Assembly (NCBI RefSeq): GCF_021917145.1 | Contig: NW_025813796.1 | Location: 911,781-975,780, forward strand | Direction: 5' to 3' | Source: Hypomesus transpacificus | Taxonomy: Eukaryota; Chordata; Actinopteri; Osmeriformes; Osmeridae | Length of the DNA: 64,000 bases | In this document: positions 21,001 to 64,000 of the stretch, piece after piece | Numbering within the stretch: the stretch's first letter is position 1 | Layout of the letters: each line of letters opens with the position of its first letter | Notes under the pieces: generated by a model | Seen by the model: the letters and a program-made list of their open reading frames with translations, nothing else | The model's database searches: none | Told to the model about the DNA's origin: nothing | Position numbers and translations under genes: made by a program

Positions 21001-23302
21001 GAAACAGCCGGCCAGAAATAAGGGGGCCGACCAAGGTGTCACAGAGGAGAAAAGTATGGATGGCATTCTGGCGGAAGAGCCCGATCTCGTTCTAGATCTC
21101 ACGGATACTCACAGTCCAGTGTCTGAGCAGGCCTTGTCACCAGACTCAGAGTCATTCGATTGGAAGGCCATTCAAGAAGGTGCAAATTCAATTGTCAGCA
21201 GTTTACACCAGGCAGCCGCCAGCTTATCCAGACAGGGCTCATCCGACTCGGACTCAGTCCTCTCCCTCAAGTCAGGAATCTCGATCGGATCCCCTTTCCA
21301 CCTACCCTCCAATACAGATGACAATAAGCCTGTGGTCAACAAGGGAGGCCCTAGAATTTTAAAACCTGGTGAAAAGGGTACACTGGAAGTAAAGAAGAAA
21401 GAGGAGGAGCAAACCAAAGGTTTAAAAGGAGGGAAGAAAGTCTACAAAAGTCTAATCACAGGAAAACCACGGCCCAGTCTGGAGACTCCCTCCTCTCAAC
21501 AAAGGCAGGCCACTGTTCCCTTGATCTCTCGTGGGAGGACGATGATCCATGTCCCAGGTGTTAGAAGCAGTTCCCCTAGCACGAGTCCTGTGCAGAAGAA
21601 GCCCCCTGCTCGGGGCCCTGTGTCAAAGCCACCCACACAAGTACAGACCTCTGGCAACTCACCCAGAAGCATCAAAACACCTGGAAAAGCTGACCCCGCT
21701 CCTGCCAGGGAGACACCTGGATCTCAAGGAGGGTCCAGTAAAGCTTCTTCCAGATCCGGATCGAGAGACTCAACTCCATCAAGACCAGCTCAACAGGCCC
21801 TGACCAGACCGATGCAGTCACCTGGCCGCACCTCTGTGTCCCCAGGAAGAAATGGTCTGAGCACTTCAAACAAGTTATCCCAATTGCCACGCACCGCCTC
21901 TCCCGGTGCGTCCTCGACAAAATCCTCTGGATCGGGCAGGATGTCCTACCCCTCCCCTGGGAGGCAAATGGGTCAGCAAGGGACAAAACAAAGTGGCCTG
22001 CCAAGGAGTGCCAGTGGAATCCCAAGAAGTGAATCTGCATCCAAGAGTCTGAATCAGTGTGGAGGCACTAGTGCCGCTAAAAAGGCAGACTTGTCCAGGA
22101 TGTCATCCACCAAATCAAGTGGGAGTGAGTCGGATAGATCAGAGAAACCGGGGCTGGTTCGCCAGTCAACGTTCATCAAAGAGGCTCCTAGTCCAACACT
22201 AAAAAGGAAATTAGAAGAGTCCGCTTCCTTTGAATCTTTGTCCCCCTCTTCGCCAAGCCAGTCTCAGACACCCGTCTCCAGCCCGTCTTTGCCAGATATG
22301 TCGTTGACGCTGCCCTTTCAGGGGAGCTGCTGGCGCAAGTCCCCTCAAAGCCAGAGCTCCTCGGAAAATGGGGACGGAAAATCAGTGAGGAAAGATATTT
22401 CCAGATCTCAGTCAGAGAGCCCTTCCCGGCTCCCCATCAACCGAACGGGAACGTGGAAGAGGGAGAACAGCAAACACTCCTCTTCCCTTCCCAGGGTGGG
22501 CACCTGGAAGAGAACAGGAAGCTCTTCCTCCATTCTTTCGGCGTCCTCCGAATCCAGCGAGAAGGGCAAAAGCGAGGACGAGAGGCAGGCGCTGAGCCCG
22601 GCCCAGAAGTCACCACAAGGCAAAGATGGCAGCACGCCTTTAAAAGGAACATGGAGGAAGATGAAAGACAGCGACATGCCCCAGTCAGAAGGCCATGAGT
22701 CTTCCGTGGAGTCTTGCAACATGGCAAGGAACCAGATGAGCTTAGCAGTTTCTCAGAGTGAGGATGTATGGGTTAGGATTGAGGACTGTCCAATTAACAA
22801 TCCCAAGTCTGGAAAATCCCCCACTGGAAACACTCCCCCTGTCATTGACAGTGTTCCAGCTAGAAAACCCTCTTCTGACCGGGACATAAGTGAAACTCAT
22901 CTTAAACAGTCGACTGCAAGCGAGATCGCCCCTGCTCGCAGGCTTGGCTCAGAGACTAATTTAAACTTGTTCAGGAGCAGCGAGAGTCTCGATAAGAAAG
23001 GGGCAGACCTCAAACTTGCTCAAAGCACCCCTTGCATAGTCCCTGACGCGCATGAACTACCCGTTGCTGAACGTACCCCTTTCAGCTCCACCAATTCTAG
23101 CAAGCACAGTTCACCCAGTGGGGCTGTTGCAGCTAGGGTCAGCCCTTTCAACTACACCCCTAGCCCCAGAAAAAGCAGCGCTGACAGCATCACACCACGG
23201 CCATCACAGATACCCACACCTGTCACCGCCACTGCGAAAAAGAAAGACTCTAAAGGGGAAAGTTCCGGAGAAAGTGGGTCTTACATCGTAACCTCCGTTT
23301 GA
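1420..23302 (+). CDS. apc: APC, Wnt-pathway tumour suppressor scaffold (whole coding span, 15 coding exons)
   Basis: APC is the scaffold of the cytoplasmic beta-catenin destruction complex with axin, GSK3 and CK1; it also binds microtubules and EB1. Coding exons: 1420-1554, 8789-8873, 9141-9327, 9707-9815, 9903-10016, 10704-10787, 12217-12297, 12789-12887, 13159-13537, 13679-13774, 13961-14100, 14202-14279, 16405-16521, 16691-16905, 17011-23302. All are bounded by AG/GT and total 8,211 nt, a clean frame of 2,736 residues plus stop. Exon lengths 85, 109, 114, 84, 99, 379, 96, 140, 78, 117 and 215 equal the human APC values as I recall them; exons 3 (187) and 7 (81) are shorter. Human APC is 2,843 residues. 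No frameshift or internal stop was seen. The noncoding first exon and promoter lie upstream of the window or were not recognised. Confidence 0.97.
2145..2197. repeat. (TA)n microsatellite
   Basis: About 26 TA repeats, followed by TGTG. In apc intron 1. Confidence 0.95.
3750..5260 (+). other. CpG-rich stretch in apc intron 1
   Basis: Two dense CpG patches (about 3750-4350 and 4850-5260) with GCGCC, CGCCG and GGCGCAAG words stand out from the AT-richer surroundings. They could be an internal promoter or regulatory island. A purine tract of AGAGAC/AGAGAG repeats (4911-5025) separates parts of it. No convincing exon was found; the long open frames here come from low complexity. Confidence 0.35.
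4911..5025. repeat. AGAGAC/AGAGAG purine microsatellite
   Basis: GA-rich compound repeat with AAAGAGAGAGAGACAG units; it generates spurious Arg/Glu and Ser/Leu open frames on the two strands. Confidence 0.95.
5980..6004. repeat. Poly-G run (25)
   Basis: Unbroken G run in apc intron 1. A 20-base poly-A (6146-6165) lies 140 bp downstream. Confidence 0.95.
7060..7079. repeat. Poly-G run (20)
   Basis: Unbroken G run in apc intron 1. Confidence 0.95.
8092..8116. repeat. Poly-C run (25)
   Basis: Unbroken C run in apc intron 1. Confidence 0.95.
8789..8873 (+). CDS. apc: apc coding exon 2
   Basis: 85 nt between TCTCGCAG and GTAAGG. It reads EVLKQLQGNAEEDSVEASGQ and continues IHLLERLK, the second part of the N-terminal coiled-coil region. 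It leaves in phase 1, completed by the next exon. The preceding intron is about 7.2 kb. Confidence 0.93.
8961..9122 (-). repeat. tRNA-derived SINE (teleost type), minus orientation
   Basis: Starts (plus view) with TTTAGCAGACGCTCTTATCC and ends with GGTTAGGG..-type head sequence read in reverse (CCCTAACCGCTCAGCCACC). It is the reverse complement of the same family as the copy at 45602. It ends next to the polypyrimidine tract of apc exon 3. Confidence 0.8.
9141..9327 (+). CDS. apc: apc coding exon 3
   Basis: 187 nt between CTTTCTTTAG and GTGGGC. It begins MSMDPNSFPGVKLRQK (the first codon completed from exon 2) and ends GYLEELEKER. The middle is a Gly/Ser/Pro-rich linker, and the exon is 15 nt shorter than the recalled human exon. 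A minus-oriented SINE ends only about 20 bp before the exon and so abuts its polypyrimidine tract. Confidence 0.92.
9707..9815 (+). CDS. apc: apc coding exon 4
   Basis: 109 nt between GGGGGCAG and GTGAGC. It encodes SLLMTELEKEEKKKDWYYAQ and continues LQNLTKRIDSLPLTEN, a segment that is nearly invariant among vertebrate APCs. The first G completes the Arg codon begun in exon 3. Confidence 0.94.
9903..10016 (+). CDS. apc: apc coding exon 5
   Basis: 114 nt between CTCCCGTAG and GTGAGA. It encodes FSLQTDMTRRQLEFEARQIR and continues AAMEEQLGTCQDMEKRAQ, charged helical sequence typical of the APC N-terminal region. The donor is followed within about 20 bp by the 20-bp minisatellite. Confidence 0.94.
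10036..10312. repeat. 20-bp G/purine-rich minisatellite in apc intron 5
   Basis: About fourteen tandem copies of a 20-bp unit, GACCAGGGAGGAGGGCTCTG, with a few substitutions (CT to CC in some units, GACC to GAAC or GGCC). The array starts just after the exon 5 splice donor. The unit length is not a multiple of three, so the long open frames across it on both strands are repeat artefacts. Runs of GGG and GGAGG on one strand make G-quadruplex formation plausible. Confidence 0.95.
10704..10787 (+). CDS. apc: apc coding exon 6
   Basis: 84 nt between TGTTTCTAG and GTAAAA. It encodes VRVARIQQIEKDMLRIRQHL and continues QTQSAEPE, continuing the helical N-terminal region; phase 0 on both sides. Confidence 0.93.
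11289..11486. repeat. Two-copy tandem duplication, about 97 bp, in apc intron 6
   Basis: CATGCGCTTAACTTCATCC starts at 11289 and again at 11386, with GAGGTGAAAACCAA and GGTATAGGAAAGTGC in both. The copies differ at scattered positions, so the duplication is not very recent. Confidence 0.85.
12189..12214. repeat. Poly-C run (26) forming the exon 7 polypyrimidine tract
   Basis: Twenty-six C bases immediately precede the AG acceptor of apc exon 7. Confidence 0.95.
12217..12297 (+). CDS. apc: apc coding exon 7
   Basis: 81 nt encoding SKHEPATQGEGAQASVESAM and TSAGCAQ, followed by donor GTAAAA. It is 24 nt shorter than the recalled human exon but in phase. The acceptor CAG directly follows an unbroken run of 26 cytosines (12189-12214), which forms the whole polypyrimidine tract. 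Confidence 0.9.
12789..12887 (+). CDS. apc: apc coding exon 8
   Basis: 99 nt between CCTTCCAG and GTAACT. It encodes GSSSRLDSDSASEMSYGGSY and continues SVPRKLTSHLGTK, the Ser-rich stretch just before the armadillo domain. Confidence 0.94.
13159..13537 (+). CDS. apc: apc coding exon 9 (start of armadillo region)
   Basis: 379 nt, exactly the recalled human length. It runs from VEMVYSLLSMLGTHDKDDMS through MRQSGCLPLLIQLLHG (an armadillo-type helix) to ETCWEWQESHE and a linker. In mammals part of this exon can be skipped through an internal donor; I did not find a clear equivalent here. The exon leaves in phase 1. Confidence 0.95.
13679..13774 (+). CDS. apc: apc coding exon 10 (armadillo)
   Basis: 96 nt between TTTCCTAG and GTAAGC. 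It encodes PSPVEHQICPAVCVLMKLSF and continues DEEHRHAMNEL, part of the armadillo domain that binds KAP3, ASEF and other partners in the family. Confidence 0.94.
13961..14100 (+). CDS. apc: apc coding exon 11 (armadillo)
   Basis: 140 nt between TTTCCCAG and GTTGGA. It encodes GGLQAIGELLQVDCDIYGLT and continues through YAGMALTNLTFGDVANK, a canonical armadillo repeat with the GL.AI..LL and AL.NLTF patterns. Confidence 0.95.
14202..14279 (+). CDS. apc: apc coding exon 12 (armadillo)
   Basis: 78 nt encoding ATLCSMKGCMRAMVAQLKSD and SEDLQQ, donor GTATGC. The following intron (about 2.1 kb) contains the Tc1 element. Confidence 0.95.
14510..14591. repeat. Older interspersed repeat split by the Tc1 element (left part)
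   Basis: The left flank reads ACCGTAATTTTCGGACTATA followed by AGGCACAA and TATAAACCGCA. The right flank of the Tc1 element, 16253-16284, resumes with TATAAGCCGCACTGGACTATA. The repeated ...GGACTATAAG[C/G]... words on both sides suggest one older repeat with internal similarity that was interrupted by the transposon. I associate ACCGTAATTT...GGACTATAAGCCGCA with repeats common in teleost genomes, but the family name is unknown to me. Confidence 0.55.
14592..16252 (-). mobile_element. Full-length Tc1/mariner transposon with long inverted repeats
   Basis: The 1,661-bp element begins CAGTGCCCTCCAAAAGTATT and ends with its reverse complement, flanked by TA on both sides (14590-14591, 16253-16254), the target duplication typical of Tc1/mariner. 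Both termini carry inverted repeats of roughly 220 bp; the motif AGTATTGGAACA recurs at the outer and inner ends of each, as in IR/DR-type elements. The single transposase gene runs on the minus strand. The element sits in the apc intron between exons 12 and 13, opposite to apc transcription. The arms are similar but not identical, so some time has passed since insertion. Confidence 0.95.
14846..15919 (-). CDS. Tc1-like DDE transposase, uninterrupted
   Basis: The protein cuts and pastes the flanking element by binding the inverted repeats and hydrolysing at TA sites. The frame is open for 357 residues; a start at residue 13 (MKTGALSLGEKQ...) gives about 345, close to the usual Tc1 length. The N-terminal half has paired helix-turn-helix sequence (GKSIRAIAETLAIASTTIWN), a GRSRKTS GRPR-like hook, then the catalytic triad: D in VLWTDETK, D in MQQDNDPKHTAK, and E in SPDLNPIEHAFYLLKRR, consistent with DD34E spacing. 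All three acidic residues are present and there is no stop or frameshift. Whether it is still active cannot be told from sequence alone. Confidence 0.93.
   Translation of the reverse strand: MSMQTVFRGENNMKTGALSLGEKQTIVSLREDGKSIRAIAETLAIASTTIWNVLKKKKTTGVLSNRRRTGRSRKTSAVDDRNIVRAVKKDPKTTVSEISNNLQMAGVKVSLSTVRRRLHEQKYKGYTRRCKPLISKKNRKARLEFAKKYRDEPQKFWDKVLWTDETKINFYQSDGKAKVWRKKGTAHDPKHTSSSVKHGGGNVMAWACMASSRTGSLIFIEDVTHDGSSKMNSEVYRNILSANLRKDATKLIGRAFIMQQDNDPKHTAKTTKEFIRGKKWKVLDWPSQSPDLNPIEHAFYLLKRRLKGGTPQNQQQLKEAAVKAWESIKKEECKSLVTSMGHRLAAVIESKGFATKY
16405..16521 (+). CDS. apc: apc coding exon 13 (armadillo)
   Basis: 117 nt between CTACCCAG and GTGAGA. It encodes VIASVLRNLSWRADVNSKKT and continues LREVGCVRALMECALEVQK, an armadillo repeat. 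Confidence 0.95.
16691..16905 (+). CDS. apc: apc coding exon 14 (armadillo)
   Basis: 215 nt between CTGTTGAAG and GTAATT. It encodes ESTLKSVLSALWNLSAHCTE, then KADICAVQGALAFLVTTL and ILRNVSSLIATNEDH; it leaves in phase 2. The acceptor is AAG rather than CAG, with a T-rich tract upstream. Confidence 0.95.
17011..23302 (+). CDS. apc: apc last coding exon (residues 640-2736; beta-catenin, axin, microtubule and PDZ binding)
   Basis: 6,292 nt coding with TGA at 23300. In order: the last armadillo repeats (QVLRGSSCLQTLLQHLKSHS...ALRNLMANRP); 15-residue beta-catenin motifs near residues 987, 1104, 1120 and 1137 (TPINYSLKYSDEQ, KPTNYSERYSEEE, QPTNYSIKYSEEH, a partial QPIDYSQK); seven 20-residue-type repeats near 1211, 1326, 1439, 1589, 1790, 1881 and 1935 (TPxxFSxxxSLSSLS cores, with GSK3/CK1-type serines); and three SAMP axin sites near 1519, 1665 and 1959 (CINSAMP, CISSAMP, CISSAMP). 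A Ser/Pro/Lys/Arg-rich basic region follows, then PSQIPTPV near 2705 (EB1-type S-x-I-P) and the end GSYIVTSV, a PDZ class I ligand. Repeat number and order match vertebrate APC. Confidence 0.97.
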
Positions 23303-43031: not shown

Positions 43032-44556
43032 CTAAAAATAGAGAAGAGACATCACATAAGTACAGGAACCTGATGTGGAGAGATGCAAATCATGGATATT
43101 GGGCCGTTCACACGTCCCCAAACCTGAAAACCCAGCCTTTGAATATCCTTTGGTGGGTGGAAGCAGCCTAGGAACCCCAGGGGCCCATTCTGAACCTCGG
43201 TTGGGTGACTACGTATATTTACTTCACTATGGGTCATTCTGAGCCAACTACTGACTCTTGTGATACCTGACCCTAAATGCCCCCCTGGAACAATGGCAGG
43301 TATGCCACTTCTTTTAATTATCCTCTACACAATGACGTTTAACGGGTAAAAAAAACGGATAATATACATTCAACCTATGTAGATAGAATCGTGATCACAA
43401 TAAAAAGGTATGAAATGTGTTTTGAGAAGACCTACAATTTAGATTCTAGTCATTGCTTTAGGTTAGAAAAACAACAATATCAACACTCCACCTATCAATT
43501 ATAGTGACACACGGTCTTACCACAGTCGTCATGGAAGACATCGTGGAAGCAGTGCAGGATTCCATATCCACACCTGCAGTATGAACAGCCCTTCTTAACC
43601 CACTCCCCTTGAGGAATCATGCCACAGGTCCTGCTCATGACGACAGAGGAAGAGAAGTTAGTCAAGTAGGAAGCTAGCTACAGCAACTATATGCTCAGTT
43701 TGATGCATGTATGGACGTTCCTGATTCATACCTGATTCTTTTGTCGTATTCACAACTCCGTCCGGTAAAGTACGGAGGACATGCGCAAAAGCTCCCCAAG
43801 ATGCAGGTCCCACCGTTTTTACAACAGTCCCGACTTTGTTTGGAGCCTTTGGATACAAAAAGTAGTATTATTATTATAATGTTATTATTAAATAGGAGTG
43901 AGAGAAAGGAGATGACATTTGTTATTAATTACGCTTCTAATTGACAATGGCCAGGGCACTGGGCAACACGTTCACACACATTCCTTCTGTCTAATGTCTT
44001 CCATCAAGGGTCAATAAAACCTAGCAGCTTGGTCGAGGGTAGGTCGACAAGCATAAAAACAAACAAAAAAAACGCCTTAACTAAATCATATGCTCCAAGG
44101 TCAAGCGCACTGGTATTGTCGATAAAAATTGCACCCAAATCAGCACTTACTTCCTGTGAGGCCGACAAAGGGAAGAACTGATCCTGCATCCCGATGTTTT
44201 GCGTTTTCGTCTGGCGAGTTCCTCTCAGTGAATTGTTTCAAATATTCAGCGTGCTGAGGTTCCACGGAGTCTTGTGTTCTGTTGCATTCAGGTCCATCAC
44301 AAGCTAGAATGCAATACATTTTTATTAATTCACTTACACCACGTTGTGTCTGTCAAAAGCATGATCTTCTGAGAAAACCATAGATTAGCCTACCTGCAGC
44401 AACCGTGATGACCTGGAAGGTAACAAGAGTAGACAGTAGAGTCCTAGAACACATTTAAAACAGGTTATCCCCTTTTACCAACAATTCATTTTAGTCGATA
44501 TTATTTTTTTTAGCCGTATTGATCCTGACTTACCTAAAGAGCTGGATTGAACTCAT
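42931..44556 (-). CDS. tdgf1: EGF-CFC Nodal co-receptor, Cripto/one-eyed pinhead orthologue (six exons, 183 residues)
   Basis: EGF-CFC proteins are GPI-anchored co-receptors that let Nodal and Vg1/GDF ligands signal through ALK4/ActRII for mesendoderm and left-right patterning. Minus-strand coding exons in order: 44556-44534, 44443-44394, 44303-44151, 43846-43732, 43630-43521, 43031-42931; all have AG/GT borders and total 552 nt. Signal peptide: MSSIQLFRTLLSTLVTFQVI then TVAAA. EGF: CCKNGGTCILGSFCACPPYF then TGRSCEYDKR, with the O-fucose site C-x-x-G-G-T-C. CFC: CGMIPQGEWVKKGCSYCRCG then YGILHCFHDVFHDDC. C-terminus: hydrophobic QTVYLQCIALLLAFFV, suiting GPI attachment. The CFC position equivalent to human Cripto His120 is Gln here, while the Trp is kept. 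Zebrafish oep is the closest match from memory. Confidence 0.93.
43521..43630 (-). CDS. tdgf1: tdgf1 exon 5 (CFC domain)
   Basis: 110 nt after ATGAGCAG, before GTAAGA. Encodes six cysteines, C-G-M-I-P-Q-G-E-W ... C-x-x-C-x-C ... H-C-F ... D-D-C. Confidence 0.95.
43732..43846 (-). CDS. tdgf1: tdgf1 exon 4 (EGF-like domain)
   Basis: 115 nt after ATCCAAAG, before GTATGA. Encodes six cysteines in EGF order, CCKNGGTC...C-x-C-P-P-Y-F-T-G-R-S-C. Confidence 0.95.
44151..44303 (-). CDS. tdgf1: tdgf1 exon 3 (variable N-terminal region)
   Basis: 153 nt after CATTCTAG, before GTAAGT. Encodes CDGPECNRTQDSVEPQHAEY and continues LKQFTERNSPDENAKHRD...LTG; it includes one N-glycosylation motif (NRT). Confidence 0.87.
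44394..44443 (-). CDS. tdgf1: tdgf1 exon 2 (signal peptide)
   Basis: 50 nt after GTTCTAG, before GTAGGC. Encodes the hydrophobic core TLLSTLVTFQVITVAA. Confidence 0.87.
44534..44556 (-). CDS. tdgf1: tdgf1 exon 1 (start)
   Basis: Encodes MSSIQLF plus two bases of Arg; donor GTAAGT. Short first coding exon. Confidence 0.85.
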
Positions 44557-50696: not shown

Positions 50697-50827
50697 ATAT
50701 AAATAGAAGATCCAAGCATGCTGGTCACACGGGGCCAGGTTAATTACAGTTGACACTTAGCGATAAATAGGAGCTGTGCCCTGAGCCTGTGAACAGGTTG
50801 TTCAAGTTCGGCAGAACACAACCACTG
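50697..50827 (+). promoter_or_regulatory. TATA box and putative noncoding first exon of the 969-residue W-repeat gene
   Basis: GATATAAATAG (50697-50707) is a good TATA box. A transcript starting about 30 bp downstream would run to a strong donor, CACTG|GTAAGC, at 50827/50828 without a useful ATG-led frame. The next acceptor (CGACAG, ending about 51446) lies just before the coding ATG at 51458. The same layout is found upstream of the downstream paralogue. Confidence 0.5.
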
Positions 50828-51457
50828 GTAAGCAATTCTTTCCTCAGTTTCTCATTACTCCATAGAAAAATGAATTGTTTTTAATGAATGAATGATCTGT
50901 GACTAATTATATAGAGGCTTGATTTGTTGTGCAAGGCATGAATGGAAGCCTTTTGACGAGGACCATATACTTAACACCTTTTTTGTGTTGTGAATAGGAC
51001 CATATACTTAAATAGATCTGAAAATGTTGCAGAATACTTTTCTTATTTGGAATGGTTATTTATAATAATTTATAAGTGAATTAACTGTCTTGGATATCAT
51101 GGCTATTCCTGAGGTTCACATTGGTGACATCATTCAAAAGCCCAGGACGTCTTCTCAATTGGATAAAATAAATAAATACAAAGGGCAATATGGCTGCAAA
51201 GTTGCACAAACCAATTATCATTAGAATGGACCTAGGAAATAACACTATAGAAATCTACAGATGGAAATTTACTTTTTTGCACAGTTTAAAACTTTAAAAC
51301 GCACTTTGTTTTCTACTTTCCTACTTTCTTACTTATTCCCAGTTTTGCAGCATAGCCCTAACAGACATAACTAAATATAAACGTTATTCAACATGACTTG
51401 TGGATCGTTGTCATTAAAGCATCACATCCTTTCTGTTGGTCGACAGAAAAAGCCATC

Positions 51458-51585
51458 ATGAGCACGGGGGAGGTGACCGGGTGCGATGCATCTATCATGA
51501 AAAATGTGTGGGAGATCAGACTCAGAGAGCAGACTATGAAAATACAGTTGGAGCAGGAAAGATTGGAGAAGAGCGCTCTGGAGAC
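51458..51585 (+). CDS. W-repeat gene 1, first coding exon
   Basis: Encodes MSTGEVTGCDASIMKNVWEI and continues RLREQTMKIQLEQERLEKSALE plus two bases. A second possible start is the Met just before KNVWE. The upstream in-frame ATG at 51398 lies before the probable acceptor and is disfavoured. Confidence 0.75.
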
Positions 51586-54500
51586 GTAAGTACACCATCT
51601 CTGGAACACAAGTCCAAACCTGTCATCAGTAGAGCATACAGTACAACTGCCAGCTAGACATGGGCAGTGCATGCACGTGGATCAAGTGTCACACCCTAAA
51701 CTGGGACAGCCTCGGCTCATTTGGAACAGCTGAAGATAAGATAAAGGAAGTATGGTTGCCTTGATTGTTAAATATAATAGTAATATTGTTACATTGAAAT
51801 CATTTTGTCATTATCCCCACACACACATGCATACACACAGGCACACAAACTGACATACATATTCCGTCCCGTGAAGTGGCATGCCACCAACATTCCTTTG
51901 ACCTATAATAAAGTGAGCCCTGATATTGAAAGCTAACTTCCGTAATCTCCCCTATGGATGGTCATGGACTGTGGTGACACTGACCCCCTTCAGACTGCAT
52001 CGGCATGATCCACTTATGTAATATTGCATCACCATGTCAAGTATGTTTGGCCTTGAAGTATATTTAGCGTTTGACTAGCCATACAGCTTATAAGAGCCAT
52101 AGAGCTAGTCAGAGTCATACAGCTTATAAGAAAACACAATATTTTAAAGTTTGTTATAGATATGAAAATATATATTTACATTTATTAATTCAGCAGACAC
52201 GTTTATCCAAAGCGACTTCCAAGACAGATGTTTACAAAGTGCATAGGTCACTGATAATAACAACAACAAGATAGCCCTAAAAACATTGCGGGTAGCCAAA
52301 ACATGAAGCACATATTGTGAACAATATATACGTACAATACATATTATATTATATATATTTAATAAATATATATATTTTCATCATGCCTCTATGGAGATTA
52401 TTTATTGCTAGTCATATAGTCAAGTCTCAGACTGTTTTGACATGTTATACTTTATTTAACCCCAAGGGTTTACACTTCGTGCTCTGATTTGACAATTTCC
52501 ACTCACTGTCTTTTAAGAAATCACAAACTCATCCCCCTTGTTTGTCCCCCAAGCAGTCTGCAGGGACACTGATGGGCACAGCATGGATGCAGGATTCATC
52601 CTAGACTGTACTTTTCTTTTGCTCTGCTTACCTTTTGGGGGGGGATTGAAATGATCAGTCGGCAACAGTTTTCTTTCCAATGTGTGCCAAGTGTGAGCAC
52701 TGTAAAGTCGCTTTGTGTTTCTCCCGTACCTCTGAGACTTCCTGCTCAGGGTTAAATTACTTTGTGAAATGCCTTGAGATCAATTTGGTGTCGTTACGAG
52801 CGGTTACGAGGTCATCAAAATAAGTCTTGACATTGGTTCTATTGCAACGTGGATTGACATAATTGTGCCTTTGGTGTTTTGCAGAATCAATAAAGATTGG
52901 CAGAAACGTATGACATCGAATCAGAAGTATCCCAAAAGGTTGGCGAGGAAACCGAAGCCGGTAGAAACCTCGGAGCCTGTTCAGCCTTACATGAACAGAC
53001 GCATGGGTGCAGACACCGGCAGAGGCACCGGATACCTTGGTTCTCAGAACCAGAGAGCCAGCCCTGTCACACTCAGCAAAAGCCTGTTAAAAAATGTCAA
53101 AATTCAAAGGCTAATCTCTCTGGCCAGCAGTCAACCAAGTGGAATGATTTGGTCCAAGTCATGGAAATTCTCCAACTCGCTGCCCAAACTAGAAGAAGGC
53201 AGTACACCACCCCCAGACTGGGGTAAATCTTGGCAATTTATGACCCTCCAGCCCCATATTGATGGCAAACCATGGACTGAGGAAAACGGCCCCGCATCTC
53301 ACCATGAAAATTGCAGTATATGGCAAAAGCCAATGAGGATGTTGGATTCGCAAGACTGTGAGCAAATCCTGCATTCACCAGAATGGGGACAGTCCTGGAA
53401 ATATAGAAAGCCCGAAAGCGATCTGAAGTCAGGAACTAAGGATAAGGCTAACAAGGAAGCTGGGTTGCATAGTTCGAAAAGCAGGATATTAGAAATGCTT
53501 GTTGAATCACAACACCACAATGAAGCATTGTCTTCATCAGAGTGGAGTGAATCTTGGAAGTCAACAAAACCTCCAAAAGCTGGGGAGGCCCACACTAATG
53601 GACCCACGAATGGCCCTTTCAATGAGCCTAAGAATGATCTGAAGAAAGATGGGAAATCAGGATCCCAGAGTATAGAGTGTTGGAAGTTTATAAACCGCCA
53701 GCTTCATGTCACTGATAACTCCAAACAAACATCACACAACCCAGAGTGGGCTGACTCATGGAGAGCTGCGAAGATGGTGTCAAACAGTAACAAAAAGGCA
53801 AAGTCTCCCGAATATTTAGAAAATGGCGAGAGACAGGATTCCAACCACGACCACCAGGTCATTATATCTGTTTCACGCGAGCTCAAGTACAGAGACCTCT
53901 TGGGTGCTCAGTTATGTGATGAAAACAAGCCTTTGTCTGAATGGGAAAAGTCCTGGAAGACAACAAAGAATCTCTCAAAACCAAGTGCAGAGGCAACCTT
54001 GAAGGCAGAGGAACCGAAGGAAAAGTCCATGGCTCAAAATCAAAAGGTTGGGATGTCCAAGGAAAATGATACAAATCTGGCAGGGGTGCAGCAGGGCATG
54101 CGTAAACCGACGATTATGTCAAAAATTGCCAAATACAGAAATCTCATGAGTCGCCTTTTGATAGATGACATGCCCTATGAGTGGAATGAGGCCTGGAAAT
54201 TCACGAAACCTCAGTCGTCCAAGGAGACAGTGCAGTGGTCAACTACTGGAATGGCAGATGACTCCATGGTCCGGAAACAACACATGACGAAAAGATCATT
54301 GACCGATTGGTCAGAATCCTGGCAATGTGCTAGACCTCACTCCCGCCATGCAATGCCCTCTGTGACTGAATGGAAAGAGTCGTGGTTTTCGAGATATAAA
54401 CCACACGCAAGGCGAGAACACTGGATCAAGGAAGCTGGGCTTAAGGACTTTGACAAGCAACATCCCAAATATGAGGTTTTCAACCTGCCCAAGAGGGCTT

Positions 54501-55666
54501 CAGCTGAAAAGATGCTTTATCACATGCAGGATGGCGAAAAGGGAATGGGAAGTGCAGAATGGAAGGAGTCGTGGAAATCTCTGAAGCATCAAATCCATCT
54601 GGAGGGGATGAGAACCATGACCGAGTGGACCGACTCTTGGAGATGTGCTGTCTTCCACACTGATATGTCAGGGCAGGAACAGCCAAGACAGAACTGGCCA
54701 GATGAATCGATGGAAATCCAACCAAGGAAAGAAAAGCTCCAAGTGCCAAGAGCCATGACCCACATGAGCCGATCTTTTGATTCTCAGGTCTTCAAAGAGA
54801 GGTATCCTCAAACCCAATGGAATGAGTCTTGGAAGGCAGCAACACTTCAACATCACCACCATAAAACCAACTACGTCATGGAAACAGACAAATCCTCATT
54901 ATTCCACCTAAACAACACCAATCCATCTACACCAGACTGGAAAAACTCATGGAAATTTGTGTGTATGCATTTCAATCAGAAAAAAGAATCTTGGGATAAG
55001 GAACGTGCCATGTTCCATTCAGAAACGAAATCACAGACACTTACGGATTATGATCAGGATGTCCAGCCTCAAATGAGCAGTCACGCATCCAAGTGGGGAA
55101 AGCCATGGAAAATGGCCAATCCCATGCCAAATGTGGAGAAAGGATCTTGGATACACAGCCATGCAAACCAGTCTCAATATGTGGTCCTGTGGTCAAGAAG
55201 CAACAGCATGAAGTCGCTTTACACAAGTCTTAAAGAAACAGCCACTTTAAGACTGTGGGAAAAATCATGGAGATTCTTGAAGATTGAGGGTAAAGGAGAT
55301 TCAAAGGCTGGTAAAGGAAAGTCGAATGGCTCTAATGGATTTGTGATTGGTACTCAGAAAAGGAAAACAAGGAAGCACATATATAGTCAAATAGATAAGG
55401 AAAAGCCTGCTGAACGGAAGTGGACTGACTGTCATAAGATAACAAAAACTCAGCCACGCCCAAAGAGAGGTTCTTTTATGAACATGCCCAAGGCAGTGAC
55501 AAAGGAAGTTTCCGACTTTACGCAGCAGTGGGCCGAATCTTGGCGGTTCTCAGACCAACCAGTGAAACAGAAGACGGAGGTAACTGCGACTCTCTCTACC
55601 TGGGGAGAATCCTGGAAGTTCCTGATTGCACCTTATCCACAACAGAATGGACCCAAGTCCAAGTAA
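51458..55666 (+). CDS. W-x-x-S-W repeat protein 1 with FAM240-like N-terminus, 969 residues
   Basis: Two coding exons: 51458-51585 (donor GTAAGT, phase 2) and 52885-55666 (acceptor TTTTGCAG, stop TAA). Residues about 14-55 (NVWEIRLREQTMKIQLEQER...SALETINKDWQKRM) align with the small FAM240-like gene of this window, including the intron position. From about residue 130 to 950 the giant exon carries about 20 copies of [E/D]-W-x-x-S-W-[K/R] (for example EWGQSWKYRK, EWSESWKSTK, EWADSWRAAK, EWKESWKSLK, QWNESWKAAT, TWGESWKFLI), 17 near-canonical and about 3 degraded, every 25-70 residues and separated by poorly ordered charged spacers. No signal peptide, membrane segment or catalytic motif is seen. 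Function unknown. Poly(A) signals overlap at 56004-56013. Confidence 0.85.
52168..52320 (+). repeat. Interspersed repeat, copy B
   Basis: TTTACATTTATTAATTCAGC, ATCCAAAGCGACTTCCAAGA and AACAAGATAGCCCTAAAAAC match copy A. It lies in the intron of W-repeat gene 1. Confidence 0.75.
52885..55666 (+). CDS. W-repeat gene 1, giant repeat exon
   Basis: 2,782 nt open from acceptor to TAA. It starts (T)INKDWQKRMTSNQKYPKRLA and ends ESWKFLIAPYPQQNGPKSK. The length of the open frame and the conserved motif make coding status secure even though the family is unfamiliar. Confidence 0.9.
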
Positions 55667-56019
55667 GACAGGGGACATGAATGCAGGGTTGACAAGGAGT
55701 TGATGAACACTTTTTATGATTCGCTAACATATCAGTAGCAAGAATAATTGTCGCCATCATCTACCACACACGCACATGGCACACACATATACACACACCG
55801 AATGACATGCTATAGTAAATGAAGGTTGATGGAAGGAAGATGTTTGCAGGTTGAGTACAGATGGTTTGAAAAGGTCTGAGTGATTTTTCAGTGGGAATGC
55901 CATGTAGGTATTTAGCAAAGCTAAATGTTATTTTAATCATACTTCTAGCTGAATGCAATTTTGTTTAGAAAATGTTTACAATCAAAAGGTTATTTTTGGA
56001 ATGAATAAATAAAGTTATG

Positions 56020-59000
56020 TCATTTTACTTTTCGTCTTTGTCTCATTCTTAAATGATAATGGTCATGATCAATATTATACCAGAAAATTACACAAGCACA
56101 CATTAAATTTAACGTTGTGATGTAATCAATAAATACAAATATTCACACTTGATTTTCACTTTTACTTAAATGCCAAGGAGCCTGAGTACATTCAACATAT
56201 TATGTTTAACAACAATTTATGAATGTATATATATAACAATATATTGGTACAAAATGTAATATAAACGACCAGGTGGTTTAGGCCTATGTCAGTGCTCATA
56301 CATTTGTCATCATAGCTGCCCAATCTCTTTTTTCCACAAACAACATGATGTGAGACCAAAAGGATATTGTGCTATTCATAGTACAATGTCATTGAATCAT
56401 TTTTTTTACATGATGATTACTGCATAATAGTAGCTGCTCCCTTACACCAGCATCTATTTTATGGATTGTGGAATACAATTTTTAGTATCAATAGATAAGT
56501 TGGTAGGATGTTAGCAGAGCAAAGACACTACATGTTTTGTGTAGAGAGGGTGCTTCACCACAGCCGTTTGATGGAGGGCCCTACAGAGGAGCTCAAGGGA
56601 GGGGCCTGTGATGGAGCTGCACCAGGAGACCCATGGCAAAGCTGAAGGGCAGGCCTTCTGAGCAGCAGTGACACACGTGATATTCTATTAAGAATGGAAT
56701 AAAAGGGTCGGGTTGTCGTGAGCATTTTTCACTTTCACAATTAGTTGCTAGGGACGATGTTTGGGGTCAGCGTAACTTTTGGGTGTACAGAACCACAATC
56801 GGCGAACAATATGTGTTTGTTTTACTTAGTCAGTAAAACATTGTTGCAAAAAAAACTAGGGCACTTAAAAAACAATCACCATGCATCCTTTGGATAGAAA
56901 TAGAAGCTGTTGACTGTTGCCATAAGCTTCCCTTATCCTTATCTTATAACACTGCACACAACTCGGATGAAGGGAGAGTATTTAGGTCATGCATGATCAG
57001 ATGAAAACCGACCGCACACAGTATGGAGGGAACACATGATATGAAAGGCTTGGCTTTCTAGTTGACACGCCAATGTGACAAGTTAGAAGTTTAAAGGTCA
57101 ACACCAATTAATAACCTTATTAGATTTGGTCTCATAGGAAACTTGACTCCAAGCCAATGCTTCAGTTTAATGTAATTCAATGTTATTTGTGATTGTTTAT
57201 CAGAAGAAAAGTATCTGTTAATTAACTGATAATTCCGGTAACATCTGTTATAAATGTTCTTGTTCATAAACACGTGTTTATGAGACTCAGTCTGATTGAT
57301 AGGATGCACAGACATCTGTAGCTTATGTGCATTTTAAATGCATTTTTTTGCGGATTACTTGGTGTAGCCATTTCTAATACATTGCATAGTTGTTTCTTTT
57401 AGATGGGGCACTTGATTTCATTAATTTACTGTAAGGACATCTAAAACACAATATACATATAACATATTTACGTCTACATGTAAAGGTTATTTAAAATCTG
57501 TAACCAAAGAAATGTGGGTCAACTCGACAGGACATTTTGTACTAATCTAATTATATTTCTACATGGAACATACTACCTCTCCAGATATGTTCAGAATGAC
57601 ACTTGAAGAAGGGTAATGTACCTAACATGTATGGAGACTGCAGCTGTGCTTGCCAAATTACATCACAACGTCTTTTTCTGTTTTGGAAAATGGCCAAGTG
57701 TCAGGCAGCAGGGTCCTATGAAAAGCACACGTCCCCTGAGGATCATCGCATTCACACATTGGATTGCAATTCATTTTGATAATTGTTTTATTTAGGTGAG
57801 TCTGTCGTTGCTACTCTCACCCAGATAATATAGCCACACACAAGGAAAAAATCATCTAGGGGAATGGAGTCCACAGATCAATACTGCTACCTTGTGCTCA
57901 TGCATGAACGCGCAGGTACACGAACACACACGCAGCCGTGTGCGCACACACGGCGTGAGCACATCGGTGCACACGCACACTCACGGAGGGCACATGTGGG
58001 AATATTGTTTAATGCACATGGAGGCACAGGAGCAAAAAGAACACATACCCAATTCATCAAGTAGATTCTAACACTTCAACACCGTATCTCAATCCCCTCC
58101 CTGGGGAAGTCAGAGGAGAGATTGTCTGGAGACAAAATTAAACCTATTAACCGAATCAATTTACAGTTCGTTGACACAATTTTCGGGCTGAGCATGTAGC
58201 CGTATACTGTCTTGCTCTGATAATGCTTTGTAAAGTGAATTAGAGAGCTCTTTTTTTTCTGCCTGCCGAACAGTCGTGTCGCTGGGGTTCCAGCAGGAAG
58301 GGCAAGGGAGGGCAGTTGGCAGGTCACTGGTGTTTATGGATGGAGTCCACGTGCTGACAAAGGGCAAAGACTATAATGTTGGCAACTCTAATCACTGCTC
58401 TTGAGAGCATCTTGATTTCTGTGGTCACAAGTGTTGAATTGGCAACTTTGCTTTGTTTTCGACCACGCCATTGATATGTGGACAATATGGTTGAGGATGG
58501 GGGGGGGGTCTGTGGGGAGGTGCGGCAGTTAAACCTGGAATTAGCTTTCTGAAAAATCCTGCCATTGTATGTCATACAGGTGGCAATGTCTGCGCTTTTG
58601 CTCGTTAAATATCAAAACTAACATTTGCATAATCCCTGTCACACTCCATAGCGTGTTTAATTACACCAGCAGTGAAGCAATTTCCTTTCCCTGAGGATCA
58701 TCCTACAACCTCTCATGTTGAGAGGTATCCCATCTCAGCTTGGAGAACCCACAATCCTAGTTAATCGCTCGGACCTCAGCATTTGAGTGTTAATATTAAT
58801 AGCGTTTCCCAATGCTAACTGTAGTTTTTCTTATTGGGTGGTCAAAAAACGGAATATACCGTTTCTTAGCAACATACAACTTTAAATAAAAACAATGACA
58901 GATAGTCACTACAGTTCATCACCACATTGCATGAATGACCAGTCTGCTTGGTGGTGTTTACATGGTTTTGATCAATTTGGCTCCCAATTAAAGTGAGATT

Positions 59001-60220
59001 CATTTGTTTCTACCTCGCATTAACACTTTATGATTGAGAGCTGACCCCTATTACTGTTACATGTGCCAGAAGAAAGCCACAAACGTGCACAAACTCCAAT
59101 ACTATTCCGGCTGTGAGACAGTATCTATCAGCACACACATGAAATTAGACAATGAATGGTTGCTGTTACACAACAAATCATTTTATCATAAAAATAAAAG
59201 CGTTATGTCCTCTCTGTGTGGATCATGTTTATGACACCAGTGTACAGTGTACGTGTTTGACATGTGTGTGGTTTGTGAGGCTGCAAATATGACACTGGGA
59301 ACAGTAATGACTTTGGCTATGGCACCTGTTGGATGAAATGTGGAGAGCAAGAACAGAATGCTGTCACTTCTGAGGTATCCCACCAGAATAGATATCAGGA
59401 CAGAGCTATGGCACGGATTCGTGCAGTGCAAACAAAACCATAAAGGCTGAACTTTGGGTCAATACAGCCTCATGTAGAAGCACCCAACTCCCTTAAACAA
59501 CGACAATAATTCAATAATCCAACAAATGCTCCTTAATTGCTCATTACGGTAGATGTGCAGAGGGACTGACATCACCTGGTGGCATCTCTCACATGGCTGT
59601 CACTCTCGGCACCCCATGTGTTTCCACCATGCTGCTGCAACCCCCCCCCCCCCCCCTCCGTCCACACGCACACCAACAAACACACGACCCCACCCACACA
59701 GACACTGCTGTGTGTGGCCTAGCGGGGAGCTAGTGATGGCCGGGCCACGGGACTCCCTCTCCAGAGAAGGGCTGCCGACCCCCACAGAGTCCCATAGGGA
59801 CTCTACTGTTGAATAATGCCCACTAAGGCCCACTGCAGTACACAGGCTGTATTGTTATGTAAGTGTCTCTGCGAAGGACACTGTCAGAGAAACATGGCCA
59901 ACACACTGACAGAGAAACATAGTTTTACAAAGTTTTATTTAGTTGCAAAATGGAGAGGGCGAAGCAACAACAGCTGGGTCTACACATGTAGACTACTTCT
60001 CATGTGTTGCTTTTTAGTCGCGAATCATCAACGGTTTGCAATTTTCCCAGTGCAGGCATTCAGCTGTCGAAAATAACTGCTGAAATACCAGATCGTTCGT
60101 TAAGTACTTCTTTAAATGCTCAACACTGTCATTTGATATGGCCTGAGAATTGTCCACATCACGTGTCATGTGACGAGAACAGAAATAATGGCATTCCAAA
60201 AGATTGTGCCTATAACTGGA
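56020..60220. other. Intergenic stretch between the two W-repeat genes
   Basis: AT-rich, with no coding exon recognised. It has CA/CACG-rich sequence at about 57900-57985 and a poly-C run at 59641-59656. Confidence 0.5.
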
Positions 60221-60226
60221 CCATAG

Positions 60227-60412
60227 CCAATGGTGAAGCATGGACATAGTATCCACATTGATAAAAATAGAATTTTGGAGAGCCACGGTCATGGAGCCTA
60301 GTTACCTCCCTCTCATGTGGTTATATATGAGTTCCTCCCTTCTCCTGTAAAGCCATCGTGGGACATCCACAGAGAAGACAAGGTTCGATATAATAAGGAT
60401 AATAGACCATAG
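60227..60412 (+). promoter_or_regulatory. CCAAT/TATA promoter and putative noncoding first exon of the 720-residue W-repeat gene
   Basis: CCAAT at 60227-60231, then GTTATATATGAG (TATA at about 60320-60330), then a candidate first exon ending AGACCATAG|GTAAGT at 60412/60413. The next acceptor is TGTCAGCAG at about 60989, ten bases before the coding ATG at 60999. It parallels the upstream paralogue. Confidence 0.5.
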
Positions 60413-60998
60413 GTAAGTCTATCTTGAACGGTCATACTAGATATATTGACACAATGCAGTGTTTAGTGAGCATTTATTTTGGCGTTGACTCGGAACTGAA
60501 AGGGATGCCATTCAAACATTGACAGCACAGTTTAAGTGAATGCAATGCTAGGCATATGGTTTTAATCACAAACCCACTTGTTATTCTCCTATCCTTTGCC
60601 ACTTGGGTAAAATAATGAAATGGTTGTTTGGTTGCATGAGACACAAACAGTGTCAGTGTTGACAGTCTGGTGTGCAACAACCGCCAGCAAGCTAAGACTG
60701 TGTTAATTATAGCTTTGCATGTAACACACCAGTATTCTGAAACTTTGCTTGCCTACAGCTATATGACACTGTTCACAAGGGCAGGAACTTTCTTTCTTTG
60801 AATTTTCTTTGAATCTCAGTGCAACATGTCCCTTGAATGGAATGTATGTTGTACTTAAGACATGCACTAGCATGTGGATAGGAATTAGATGCAAAAGGCC
60901 AGATTTTCCATGGGACTTCTGGACACGAATATCATGATGTGGGGGTGGCAGTTTGGCTGATGTGTCCTTGTGTTGCTCCCTGTCAGCAGGTGGGCGAT

Positions 60999-61129
60999 AT
61001 GCAGGACAGGGCAGAGGTGACCGTGTATGACAACTTCCAGCTCAAAGACCAGTGGGAGAAGAGAGCACAGCTGTTAAGTGACAAAGAAAATCAGGAGAAG
61101 GAAAGGAAGGAAAAAAGTGCCATCAATGG
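60999..61129 (+). CDS. W-repeat gene 2, first coding exon
   Basis: Encodes MQDRAEVTVYDNFQLKDQWE and continues KRAQLLSDKENQEKERKEKSAIN plus GG of a split Gly codon. The frame stays open upstream through the acceptor, so an upstream coding start cannot be excluded. Confidence 0.75.
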
Positions 61130-63558
61130 GTAAGATGATGTTATTAGTGGAGGGATATCTGACTCGATCTACGATTTCCCCCCGTCTGCTGTAAGTGAAA
61201 GGCAATCAGATATTTCATTTGTGCTGCTTCTGTGAGACAGGTGAGTTGACACTGAGAATGGGAAAAAATGGGGGAGTTAAAGATAATTTAAATGGAGATT
61301 ATGGATCCTTCTTTCCCTTTGAGACAGGGGTTTATGTGCTCCTGGAGGACAGACACCATGCAATCCCAATACACTGCTTCTGACGGCTGCTCCAACTGTA
61401 GTGTTTAGTTGTCACCCCTTTCCCCCCCGCTCAATCTCTTCCCTCTGAATGTCCATGTACTGAATAACATTGTTGCGGTTCTAACTTCTGATTCCTTCCC
61501 TGTTGTGGCCTTCTTGTAATCTACAGGCTTTTTAAAGAGTGGCAGTATCGCATGGCAGTCAGGACGGGCACGGTTCCGGTGTCGGAAAAGAAAGGAAAGG
61601 GAAGTGACATGTCTGACTTCAGGAAGTATGTGGTGAAAGCGTCTGGAGAAGAAGTGGATATGTCTCGTTTGGAAGCCAAATTTAAGGTGAAACCCCCTCC
61701 AAAGAAGCCTGTAGCCCCCCCTCCATCCCCACCACCGAAGAAGAAACCACCCTCACCACCGAAGAAGAAACCACCCCCACCACCAAAGAAGGAGATACCC
61801 CCAAAACCAGTGGAAAAGAAGCCTGTCGAGAAGCCAAAGCCTCCAGCAGGCTGGGGTGAGTCATGGAAGATGCTGAAATCTCCCATTCGCCAGCAGAGGA
61901 GTGTGGAATCGAAGCAAGAATCTGTGGCACCCCAACAAACAAATGACAAAACATACAAGTCCCAGGGTTACGACTTTGAAAAGCAGTGGGGATCCAATGC
62001 GGAATGGAAAGAGTCATGGAAGCAGTTGAAAAACCATTCGGATGAGGTTTCAATGGAAAACATGTCCTTCTTTGAGATTATATCCCAGGGGAAGTGGTGG
62101 AGGACATACGAGGAGATCGAAACCTTTGCTCTTCCTGTCTGGGCTGGCACGTGGAAGACGGTCAACTTTAAACTGGGTCAGACTCCTGAGGACTGGGATC
62201 AGAAATGGCCCCAATACAAACGTGAACCGAGCGATAAACTTCTGAAGGCTCAGTTTCTGGAAGACACTGTCAGCCTACCTGGATGGGAGGACTGTTGGAA
62301 GACCGCAAAGCCTGATGTGAAACAAGAAACGGAGAAGACAAAATTACAAATTCCCAATGTCTTCTTACCAGGTTGGAATGATTCTTGGAAGACCTGCGAT
62401 ATGGGTGTCAAACACAATGATCAGGCCCCACCAAGTATGAGGGATTGGCGAGACTCCTGGAACTACTGCCAAGAGCACAAGTGGTGCTCGGCATCCATGG
62501 ATTCCCGCTATCGTCATTATGCCATGATGATGGCAAAACGCAAACTGACCAATGAGCTACGGGGCGGTCTGCTCGACGAGGAAATTCCCTCTGAGTGGAT
62601 GGAATCTTGGAAATCCCCTCAATGTCAGTCTCAGACAGAAGAATCAGATGAATCTGAACCCGTTTCTGAGCAGGACATGTCAGATGTACCACTGCATCTC
62701 CAGTTCCACAAGATAAATACGTCTTTCCCATCCTGGACTGAGTCATGGAAGGTTTCATCCGCACCTACAGCAGGTGACGATGAAGAGCAGTCCTCCACAG
62801 ATTGGAAGGACTCCTGGAAACTATCCAATCCTAATATGAGCTCCAATTCACAGAGCCATGGAGATGTCATATTTTTGTCTAAAAAGCATAAGACCCACAG
62901 ATACATGGGTGTCGAGCACGCGGAAGACGCAATGGGCCAGGATGAGTGGTCAGAGTGCTGGAAAACGACCAAGCCCGAACCACAGCAAGAGCTCGAAGAA
63001 GAGAACGCGCCTGACAGAAACTACGACCTCTCTAAACATTCACCCGCAGTGATAGACATCCCTCTGTATGACTGGACAGAGTCATGGAGGCTGTCTACTC
63101 CCTTCAAGCCTTGTAACTCAAATTCACTGGCCAGGTGGAAAGAATCATGGAGGCTCTCTAATCTGAACCACGCCGAGCAGCTTGACCAAGGCGTTGAGTC
63201 TCGGTTTTACAGACAAAATGGCCCCAAACATCACCAGCACCTGTGCGAGGTGGATCTGCCTCAAGAAGAGTGGAACAACTCCTGGAAGTACCTCAAGTCA
63301 GACACTCTGGACCCGAACATGAGCAGGGAGGACAGTGAGGAGTGGGGCCAGAGCTGGAGGGTTCTCAACCCGCAACTCTACCTGAAGAAGGAGGCCTGGT
63401 GTGACCAGGCAACGCCTGAACCCTTCGCTGATCTACGTCTGCAGTTTACGTTCTTGTCGAGGGAAGACCGAATGGTGCTGAAGCCTGAGTTTAGTCCTTC
63501 AGAGTGGTCCGAGTCCTGGAGGTTCCTGAAGCAAGAAGCAGACACAAGATCTAAGTGA
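60999..63558 (+). CDS. W-x-x-S-W repeat protein 2 with FAM240-like N-terminus, 720 residues
   Basis: Two coding exons: 60999-61129 (donor GTAAGA, phase 2) and 61527-63558 (acceptor ATCTACAG, stop TGA). The N-terminus (MQDRAEVTVYDNFQLKDQWE...KSAINGLFKEWQYRM) aligns with W-repeat gene 1 and with the small FAM240-like gene. Residues about 98-150 are a Pro/Lys tract built of PPKKK and PPPP words. From about 150 to 706 there are roughly 16 tryptophan-pair motifs, such as GWGESWKMLK, EWKESWKQLK, GWNDSWKTCD, DWTESWRLST, RWKESWRLSN and EWSESWRFLK; some are altered at Ser or the second Trp (VWAGTWKTVN, GWEDCWKTAK, DWDQKWPQYK). No secretion or membrane signals. A tandem paralogue of the gene 10 kb upstream, same strand. 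Function unknown. Poly(A) signal AATAAA at 63702-63707. Confidence 0.85.
61527..63558 (+). CDS. W-repeat gene 2, giant repeat exon
   Basis: 2,032 nt open. It starts LFKEWQYRMAVRTGTVPVSE after the split Gly and ends SESWRFLKQEADTRSK. The first third holds the Pro/Lys tract, the rest the tryptophan-pair repeats. Confidence 0.9.
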
Positions 63559-64000
63559 AATGAAGAATAATTGCAACAAAAAAACATACAGTGTAGACAA
63601 CGTCATCATTGATAGTGTGTCTTTAGCTCTAAGTATTGCTTTGCAATAGCTGATTTGGTGCTCCTAGGAAATAATACAGTGTGATTTTGAAATCCCAATG
63701 CAATAAAAACATAATATAAAAAAATCTATCTGCCTCATTTCTTTTCAATAATCGCTAATTGCAATGTCATTTACATAATAGCAATATCCATGATCAATAG
63801 GTCACCATGCAGACCATCACCATTTGCATGCAGCTGTAATTACATATGGAACATTGGATTTTCCGTTGATGACTCATGCACAAATTACAGATAACGATCC
63901 CAGTAAATACACCTGCATCAACACGAGGTACAACTTGAACAACTAGCACATTTTAACAGCTGTGATTCTCACGCTTAAGTGAAAAAGTGTCAAGTTAAAT

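What the first reader, a model, noticed from the sequence alone, without database searches (positions are those of the whole stretch)
50697..63710. A tandem pair of genes built from tryptophan-pair repeats, [E/D]-W-x-x-S-W-[K/R]
Two neighbouring genes encode proteins with about 20 and 16 copies of a short motif with two tryptophans four residues apart, followed by a basic residue and set in charged, disordered-looking spacers. On a helix the two Trp would lie on one face, which suggests many small docking sites rather than a folded domain. I know no named family with this layout. The motif stays intact while the spacers differ strongly between the paralogues, which points to selection on the motif itself.
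Basis: partly seen in the sequence, partly recalled or inferred. Interest (0 to 1): 0.85.

Follow-up and report, generated by a model that had tools for sequence, protein, structure and literature searches.

The report
Fish Trp-repeat proteins with LRRC2-like head
Two neighbouring fish genes encode uncharacterised proteins that join a small helical head, shared with the striated-muscle protein LRRC2, to a long floppy tail carrying about 16 copies of a conserved double-tryptophan motif, so they look like multi-site docking proteins whose partner is still unknown.

Summary
Gene A (51458-51585 + 52885-55666, 969 aa) has 17 W-x3-W motifs, gene B (60999-61129 + 61527-63558, 720 aa) has 16; shuffles give about 2. 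Named homologues are teleost proteins without a described function, in two old paralogue groups. Against 29 A homologues, aligned motif Trps match in 397 and 355 of 400 cells and the residue between (mostly Ser) in 321, spacers in 5286 of 16462. AlphaFold2 is confident only for an N-terminal helical hairpin. It also resembles FAM240A, but that sequence was recalled and not confirmed. Best reading: a teleost scaffold with an LRRC2-type head and many short Trp-Ser-Trp docking sites. Partner, tissue and mechanism are inferred. The helix-face idea gets no clear support. One literature search for the motif found nothing relevant.

The parts
51458..51585 (+). Gene A coding exon 1: first part of the LRRC2-type head (MSTGEV...KSALE plus 2 nt; phase-2 donor)
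   Evidence: open frame and donor; agrees with exon-1 ends of homologues
52885..55666 (+). Gene A coding exon 2 with stop: rest of head, then tail with 17 W-x3-W motifs
   Evidence: ORF, spliced model, motif count
60999..61129 (+). Gene B coding exon 1: first part of the LRRC2-type head (MQDRAEV...KSAIN plus 2 nt; phase-2 donor)
   Evidence: the O. mordax model P0001 reads through the same junction
61527..63558 (+). Gene B coding exon 2 with stop: rest of head, proline-rich stretch (about 61690-61850), tail with 16 W-x3-W motifs
   Evidence: ORF
50698..50704 (+). TATA-like box (TATAAAT) upstream of gene A; a possible 5' non-coding exon could end near 50827
   Evidence: consensus match only; exon end read by eye
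60322..60328 (+). TATA-like box (TATATAT) upstream of gene B; a possible 5' non-coding exon could end near 60412
   Evidence: consensus match only; exon end read by eye
43498..43928 (-). tdgf1 (Cripto) exons, nearest gene identified upstream of A
   Evidence: CFC domain PF09443 E 4.4e-15; the EGF-like exon beside it gives only sub-cut-off EGF matches
16988..23302 (+). apc last exon, further upstream neighbour
   Evidence: APC repeats, SAMP, APC basic and EB1-binding domains

Best explanation
A and B are a tandem pair of old teleost paralogues. Each protein has an N-terminal helical hairpin of about 60 residues, homologous to the N-terminus of LRRC2 and split by the same phase-2 intron, followed by a 650-900 residue disordered tail encoded by one giant exon. 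Shown: the gene structures, the homology of the head to lrrc2 in the same genome, the conservation of the motif Trps and Ser over fast-changing spacers in teleosts, and the lack of a confidently predicted fold in the tail. Inferred: the head places the protein at the partner or site that LRRC2 uses (mammalian LRRC2 is enriched in striated muscle and partly mitochondrial), and the repeated [ED]-W-x-[ED]-S-W-[KR] motifs act as short linear docking sites that gather many copies of one partner, the central Ser being a possible switch.
For: Motif far above chance. Against 29 A homologues (of 39 hits), 400 aligned of 493 cells per motif position: W1 397, W2 355, position +3 (Ser in 15 of 17 motifs of A) 321 identical, against spacer 5286 of 16462 aligned; Ser inside motif windows 335 of 429 against Ser in spacers 679 of 2016. 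B against 5 close homologues (of 29 hits): W1 80/80, W2 78/80, spacer 1507/2398; Ser in motifs 62/75 against 178/265 in spacers. Head: 25-row alignment with invariant W19, S40, W49; AlphaFold2 block means 77-92 over residues 11-50, overall mean pLDDT 43.7 and 40.3. lrrc2 on contig C24: found with A exon 1 (E 0.0059), 62.5 bits to the head profile against a best of 10.7 in 10,000 shuffles, same intron position and phase, followed by LRR exons. LRRC2 striated-muscle enrichment: PMC12785520 (passages, some from its abstract). LRRC2 partly mitochondrial: PMC5291451 (passages, some from its abstract). The A rows are split from all others with 100/100 support. Head and tail read as one frame on contigs hardly longer than the coding sequence (P0002 2395, P0005 2406, P0007 2624, P0033 3699 bases), which suggests spliced transcripts (inference).
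Against: No partner, tissue or localisation data for A or B were obtained. Spacers carry conserved blocks and lone spacer Trps are kept about as well as motif Trps, so the unit of selection may be wider than the motif. Motif number is not fixed: percomorph B rows have about 7-10 and two salmonid rows (P0021, P0025) only 4. In A, motifs 476, 518 and 539 align with the first Trp in 4 of 29 homologues, motif 728 in 12, and motifs 780 and 834 keep the second Trp in only 11 and 13 of 29. The tree has two long branches whose place is unsure (P0015, P0025) and rows of unusual composition. Identity of the C24 locus as lrrc2 rests on recalled human LRRC2 and LRR matches, not on an annotated record. A shared head does not prove a shared location.
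Confidence: 0.5

Rival explanations
1. Cytoskeletal or sarcomeric cross-linker: each Trp motif binds successive subunits of a filament, in the manner of nebulin or Xin repeats, in striated muscle.
For: Many similar motifs strung along one chain; LRRC2, which shares the head, is striated-muscle enriched (passages).
Against: Motif spacing is irregular (18-54 residues in B, 21-91 in A), unlike the fixed register of nebulin repeats (recalled). No significant match to a solved structure. No expression data.
Confidence: 0.2
2. Sticker-and-spacer protein: the Trp motifs mainly bind each other or RNA and drive a condensate, with no single folded partner.
For: Charged tail without a confident fold with recurring aromatic residues; lone spacer Trps are also conserved (187/211 in A, 25/25 in B).
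Against: Motif Ser is kept better than other Ser in A (335/429 against 679/2016) and a basic residue usually follows; a pure aromatic sticker would not need them. The Ser contrast is weaker in B (62/75 against 178/265).
Confidence: 0.2
3. The tail is a weakly constrained giant exon in which Trp persists only because Trp is slow to change.
For: Lone Trps are about as conserved as motif Trps.
Against: Motif Ser is also held, the pattern occurs in both A and B groups, and frames of hundreds of codons stay open across teleosts.
Confidence: 0.03

Closest known systems
LRRC2 (leucine-rich repeat containing 2), N-terminal region
   Same: Homologous head: 19 of 44 (A) and 17 of 44 (B) identical residues in the ungapped core, same intron position and phase 2.
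   Different: LRRC2 continues into leucine-rich repeats; A and B continue into the Trp-motif tail, and Pfam finds no LRR in their large exons.
FAM240A/B/C (small human proteins of unknown function)
   Same: A recalled FAM240A sequence fits the head profile without gaps (32.5 bits, best of 5000 shuffles 11.9); recalled human gene order places FAM240A beside LRRC2 and TDGF1.
   Different: FAM240 proteins are about 80 residues with no Trp tail (recalled).
Pfam PF27680
   Same: Precomputed on many family members, including short fragments that hold only the exon-1 part, so it covers the head.
   Different: Did not appear in scans with the local Pfam copy; its name and scope could not be read, and a paper search for the accession found none.
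Multi-motif disordered scaffolds such as GW182/TNRC6 (recalled)
   Same: Works-like comparison: many Trp-containing short motifs in disorder.
   Different: GW182 uses isolated G-W/W-G sites (recalled); here the unit is two Trps four apart with a central Ser and usually a following basic residue.

Membership tests
LRRC2 | N-terminal W-E-x-[RK]...KSAL...W helical region | tested here: met
   The lrrc2 locus of the same genome scores 62.5 bits against the A/B head profile and shares the phase-2 intron
LRRC2 | C-terminal leucine-rich repeats | tested here: not met
   Pfam scan of the A and B large exons gives no LRR; exons of the lrrc2 locus do. A and B share a domain with LRRC2 but are not LRRC2.
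FAM240 | same head sequence | tested here: inconclusive
   Only a recalled FAM240A was compared; the head-profile search (15 hits among 49 candidates) showed no source name at all for its hits
FAM240 | short protein ending soon after the head (recalled) | tested here: not met
   A 969 aa, B 720 aa
FAM240 | genomic position next to TDGF1/LRRC2 (recalled for human) | tested here: inconclusive
   tdgf1 is the nearest gene identified upstream of A; lrrc2 lies on another contig; a cattle gene list names LRRC2, TDGF1 and RTP3 in a row (PMC9875303, passages) but not FAM240A
Any family with a solved structure | significant sequence match to a PDB chain | tested here: not met
   none at E up to 1; best E 0.3. 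Only B-type tails and the head profile were searched, not A's tail

The most novel reading that the evidence does not exclude
A teleost invention in which the LRRC2-type head was joined to a giant exon encoding a new linear motif, W-x-[ED]-S-W-[KR], read many times over by a partner domain not yet recognised as a motif reader; the pair would define a new motif-reader system, perhaps in fish striated muscle.
Probability: 0.35. Interest if true: 0.75.

Novelty: new variant of a known kind. Interest (0 to 1): 0.6.

Why it matters
The named homologues are labelled uncharacterized, hypothetical or unnamed, or carry unrelated names (midasin-like, nestin-like, golgin-like, cingulin-like), yet the motif is held in both paralogue groups, each with clupeiform and euteleost members. 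A conserved motif repeated up to 26 times in one chain is an easy target for partner-finding. The link to LRRC2 gives a first testable location and tissue, and could help explain the N-terminal region of LRRC2 and perhaps FAM240 in mammals.

Tried and rejected
Look-ups for the repeat gave nothing useful: Pfam (weak sub-threshold matches only, apart from the CFC domain of the fused Solea model), PDB, papers (101 papers, 20 listed, none on this, 2 papers, search listing only, unrelated). Considered from memory and set aside: kinesin W-acidic motif (needs an acidic residue directly after Trp), LIR motif (position +7 is S 25%, L 17%, T 15%, not consistently L/I/V), C-mannosylation WxxW (spacing differs), GW/WG Argonaute hooks. 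A pattern scan upstream of the genes for muscle-type sites found one loose MEF2-like match and one E-box before A, four E-boxes and no MEF2 before B, no CArG before either; no chance control was run. The genome search with recalled FAM240A gave one hit with a stop inside and no head-like ORF. Forty kb downstream of the window showed no clear gene among ORFs of 75 codons or more, which would miss short exons. A leucine-rich-repeat pattern in and around the window gave three loose matches that I judged chance.

Rows dropped before counts: one search used 29 of the 39 A hits (partial, near-identical, fused or very weak ones left out) and 5 of the 29 B hits, and its 400 aligned cells leave out 93 gap cells per motif position; one search used 25 of the 37 head rows kept (46 extracted); one search used 20 of the 29 B hits; one search used 28 homologues plus A and B; one search used 27 A-type rows; one search used 65 rows. 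The protein search scored only the 7986 candidates sharing most words. The head-profile search could only see proteins of similar length, which shuts out LRRC2.

Full report
What is there. Two + strand genes lie at 51458-55666 (A) and 60999-63558 (B). Each has a short coding exon, a phase-2 intron with GT-AG ends and one giant exon. The spliced proteins are 969 and 720 residues. A has 17 and B has 16 W-x3-W motifs; 2000 residue shuffles give means of 2.1 and 2.0, and the fuller pattern W..[STC]W[KR] occurs 12 and 14 times against a shuffle maximum of 2. The motif Ser uses four different codons in each gene, so the array is not a recent DNA duplication. A TATA-like box precedes each gene (consensus match only).

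Who has it. Searches with the two large exons found 29 proteins (only the 7986 candidates sharing most words were scored) and 39 (of 4579) at E up to 1. The hits that carry an organism name are teleosts (taxonomy recalled), labelled uncharacterized, hypothetical or unnamed, or given unrelated names. Only relatives that share short words are reachable, so absence outside teleosts is not shown. A tree of 30 rows splits the A rows (12) from the rest with 100/100 support. The A side holds clupeiforms, cypriniforms, smelts and percomorphs; the other side holds B-type rows of a clupeiform (a model fused to a partial A-like copy), salmonids, pike, smelts and spiny-rayed fish, plus eel and one whitefish row on long branches whose place is unsure. 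In the window's own genome each large exon matched only itself; since neither query found the other paralogue, that search would miss distant copies.

Selection. On 29 A homologues the two motif Trps match in 397 and 355 of 400 aligned cells and position +3 (Ser in 15 of 17 motifs) in 321 of 400, against 5286 of 16462 for spacers. Ser inside motif windows is kept in 335 of 429 cells against 679 of 2016 for spacer Ser. Against the simple reading: lone spacer Trps are kept about as well (187 of 211), conserved non-Trp blocks exist in the spacers, motifs 476, 518 and 539 align with the first Trp in only 4 of 29 homologues, motif 728 in 12, and motifs 780 and 834 keep the second Trp in 11 and 13. 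For B the five close relatives show W1 80/80, W2 78/80, spacer 1507/2398; in percomorph B rows the motif count is about 7-10, in several beside long acidic stretches, and two salmonid rows have 4. No dN/dS was run.

Fold. AlphaFold2 with 20 and 27 rows gives mean pLDDT 43.7 and 40.3. Only the N-terminal hairpin is confident (helices 12-39 and 41-56 in the B-type P0001, 3-38 and 41-53 in the A-type P0031; block means 77-92 over residues 11-50). Only 3 of 16 and 4 of 21 motifs are fully helical, against 18% and 12% helical residues after residue 60. The tail therefore looks disordered, and the helix-face idea gets no clear support.

The head is LRRC2's. A 25-row alignment of the N-termini shows invariant Trp, Ser and Trp. 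A search of the same genome with gene A exon 1 found, besides itself, one locus on contig C24 (E 0.0059). That locus encodes MTTRLEKR...LWEVRVKKYKHKLRTEKERVEKSALVK, a phase-2 intron, then INKQWQYRI..., and further downstream exons with leucine-rich repeats. I identify it as lrrc2 from recalled human LRRC2 and the LRR matches; no annotated LRRC2 was compared. Its head scores 62.5 bits against the A/B head profile, with the best of 10,000 shuffles at 10.7, and the intron sits at the same residue and phase as in A and B. A recalled FAM240A sequence also fits (32.5 bits against 11.9 in 5000 shuffles), but I recalled it after seeing the head, so it is a lead only; a genome search with it found nothing credible.

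Neighbourhood. apc and tdgf1 lie upstream, and a Solea model fuses a B protein to a tdgf1 CFC domain. A cattle gene list names LRRC2, TDGF1 and RTP3 in a row (PMC9875303, passages seen); that human FAM240A lies there too is recalled. One economical story, inferred, is that an LRRC2/FAM240-type head gene beside tdgf1 acquired the giant tail exon and duplicated in tandem early in teleost evolution.

Mechanism. Mammalian LRRC2 is striated-muscle enriched (PMC12785520, passages) and at least partly mitochondrial, under Pgc-1alpha control (PMC5291451, passages). The most likely reading is that the head sets the location and the tail offers many short docking sites. The partner, the tissue and the role of the Ser are not shown. 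Paper searches for the motif (two unrelated papers listed), PF27680 (none) and the whole word FAM240 (none) found nothing relevant in the held library. A search for FAM240A, FAM240B and FAM240C listed 12 papers; in the three of these that I looked into by passages FAM240 genes appear as list entries or as genes of unknown function.

Noticed in passing
window 14846-15922, - strand: Tc1/mariner-like transposase ORF (358 aa between stops) with HTH and DDE_3 domains, lying among the apc exons or just upstream of the last ones.
   Followed up: partly
window 52885-55666 compared with P0031 (Osmerus eperlanus): Gene A here is about 135 residues shorter (969 against 1104) and has 17 W-x3-W motifs against 21; a block with motif repeats present in the other smelt is missing in frame.
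   Followed up: partly
P0003, P0004 (salmonid B-type, 1139 and 1128 aa): B-type tails with 26 motifs that look internally duplicated.
   Followed up: no
P0018 (Solea), P0063 (Coilia): Gene models that seem to fuse neighbouring genes: a B protein joined to tdgf1, and an A-like piece joined to a complete B.
   Followed up: partly
P0014, P0016, P0020 (pipefish and relatives): B-type proteins with hundreds of residues of mostly acidic insert between conserved blocks, which may have caused names such as midasin-like, glutamic acid-rich and golgin.
   Followed up: no
window about 9950-10400: Short repeated unit (ALDQGGGLWTREEGSGPGRR in one frame), a GC-rich minisatellite-like array upstream of the apc last exon.
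   Followed up: no
G000:C24 about 5094523 onward (L011, L013): The smelt lrrc2 locus lies on a different contig from tdgf1, whereas a cattle gene list names LRRC2 and TDGF1 side by side.
   Followed up: partly
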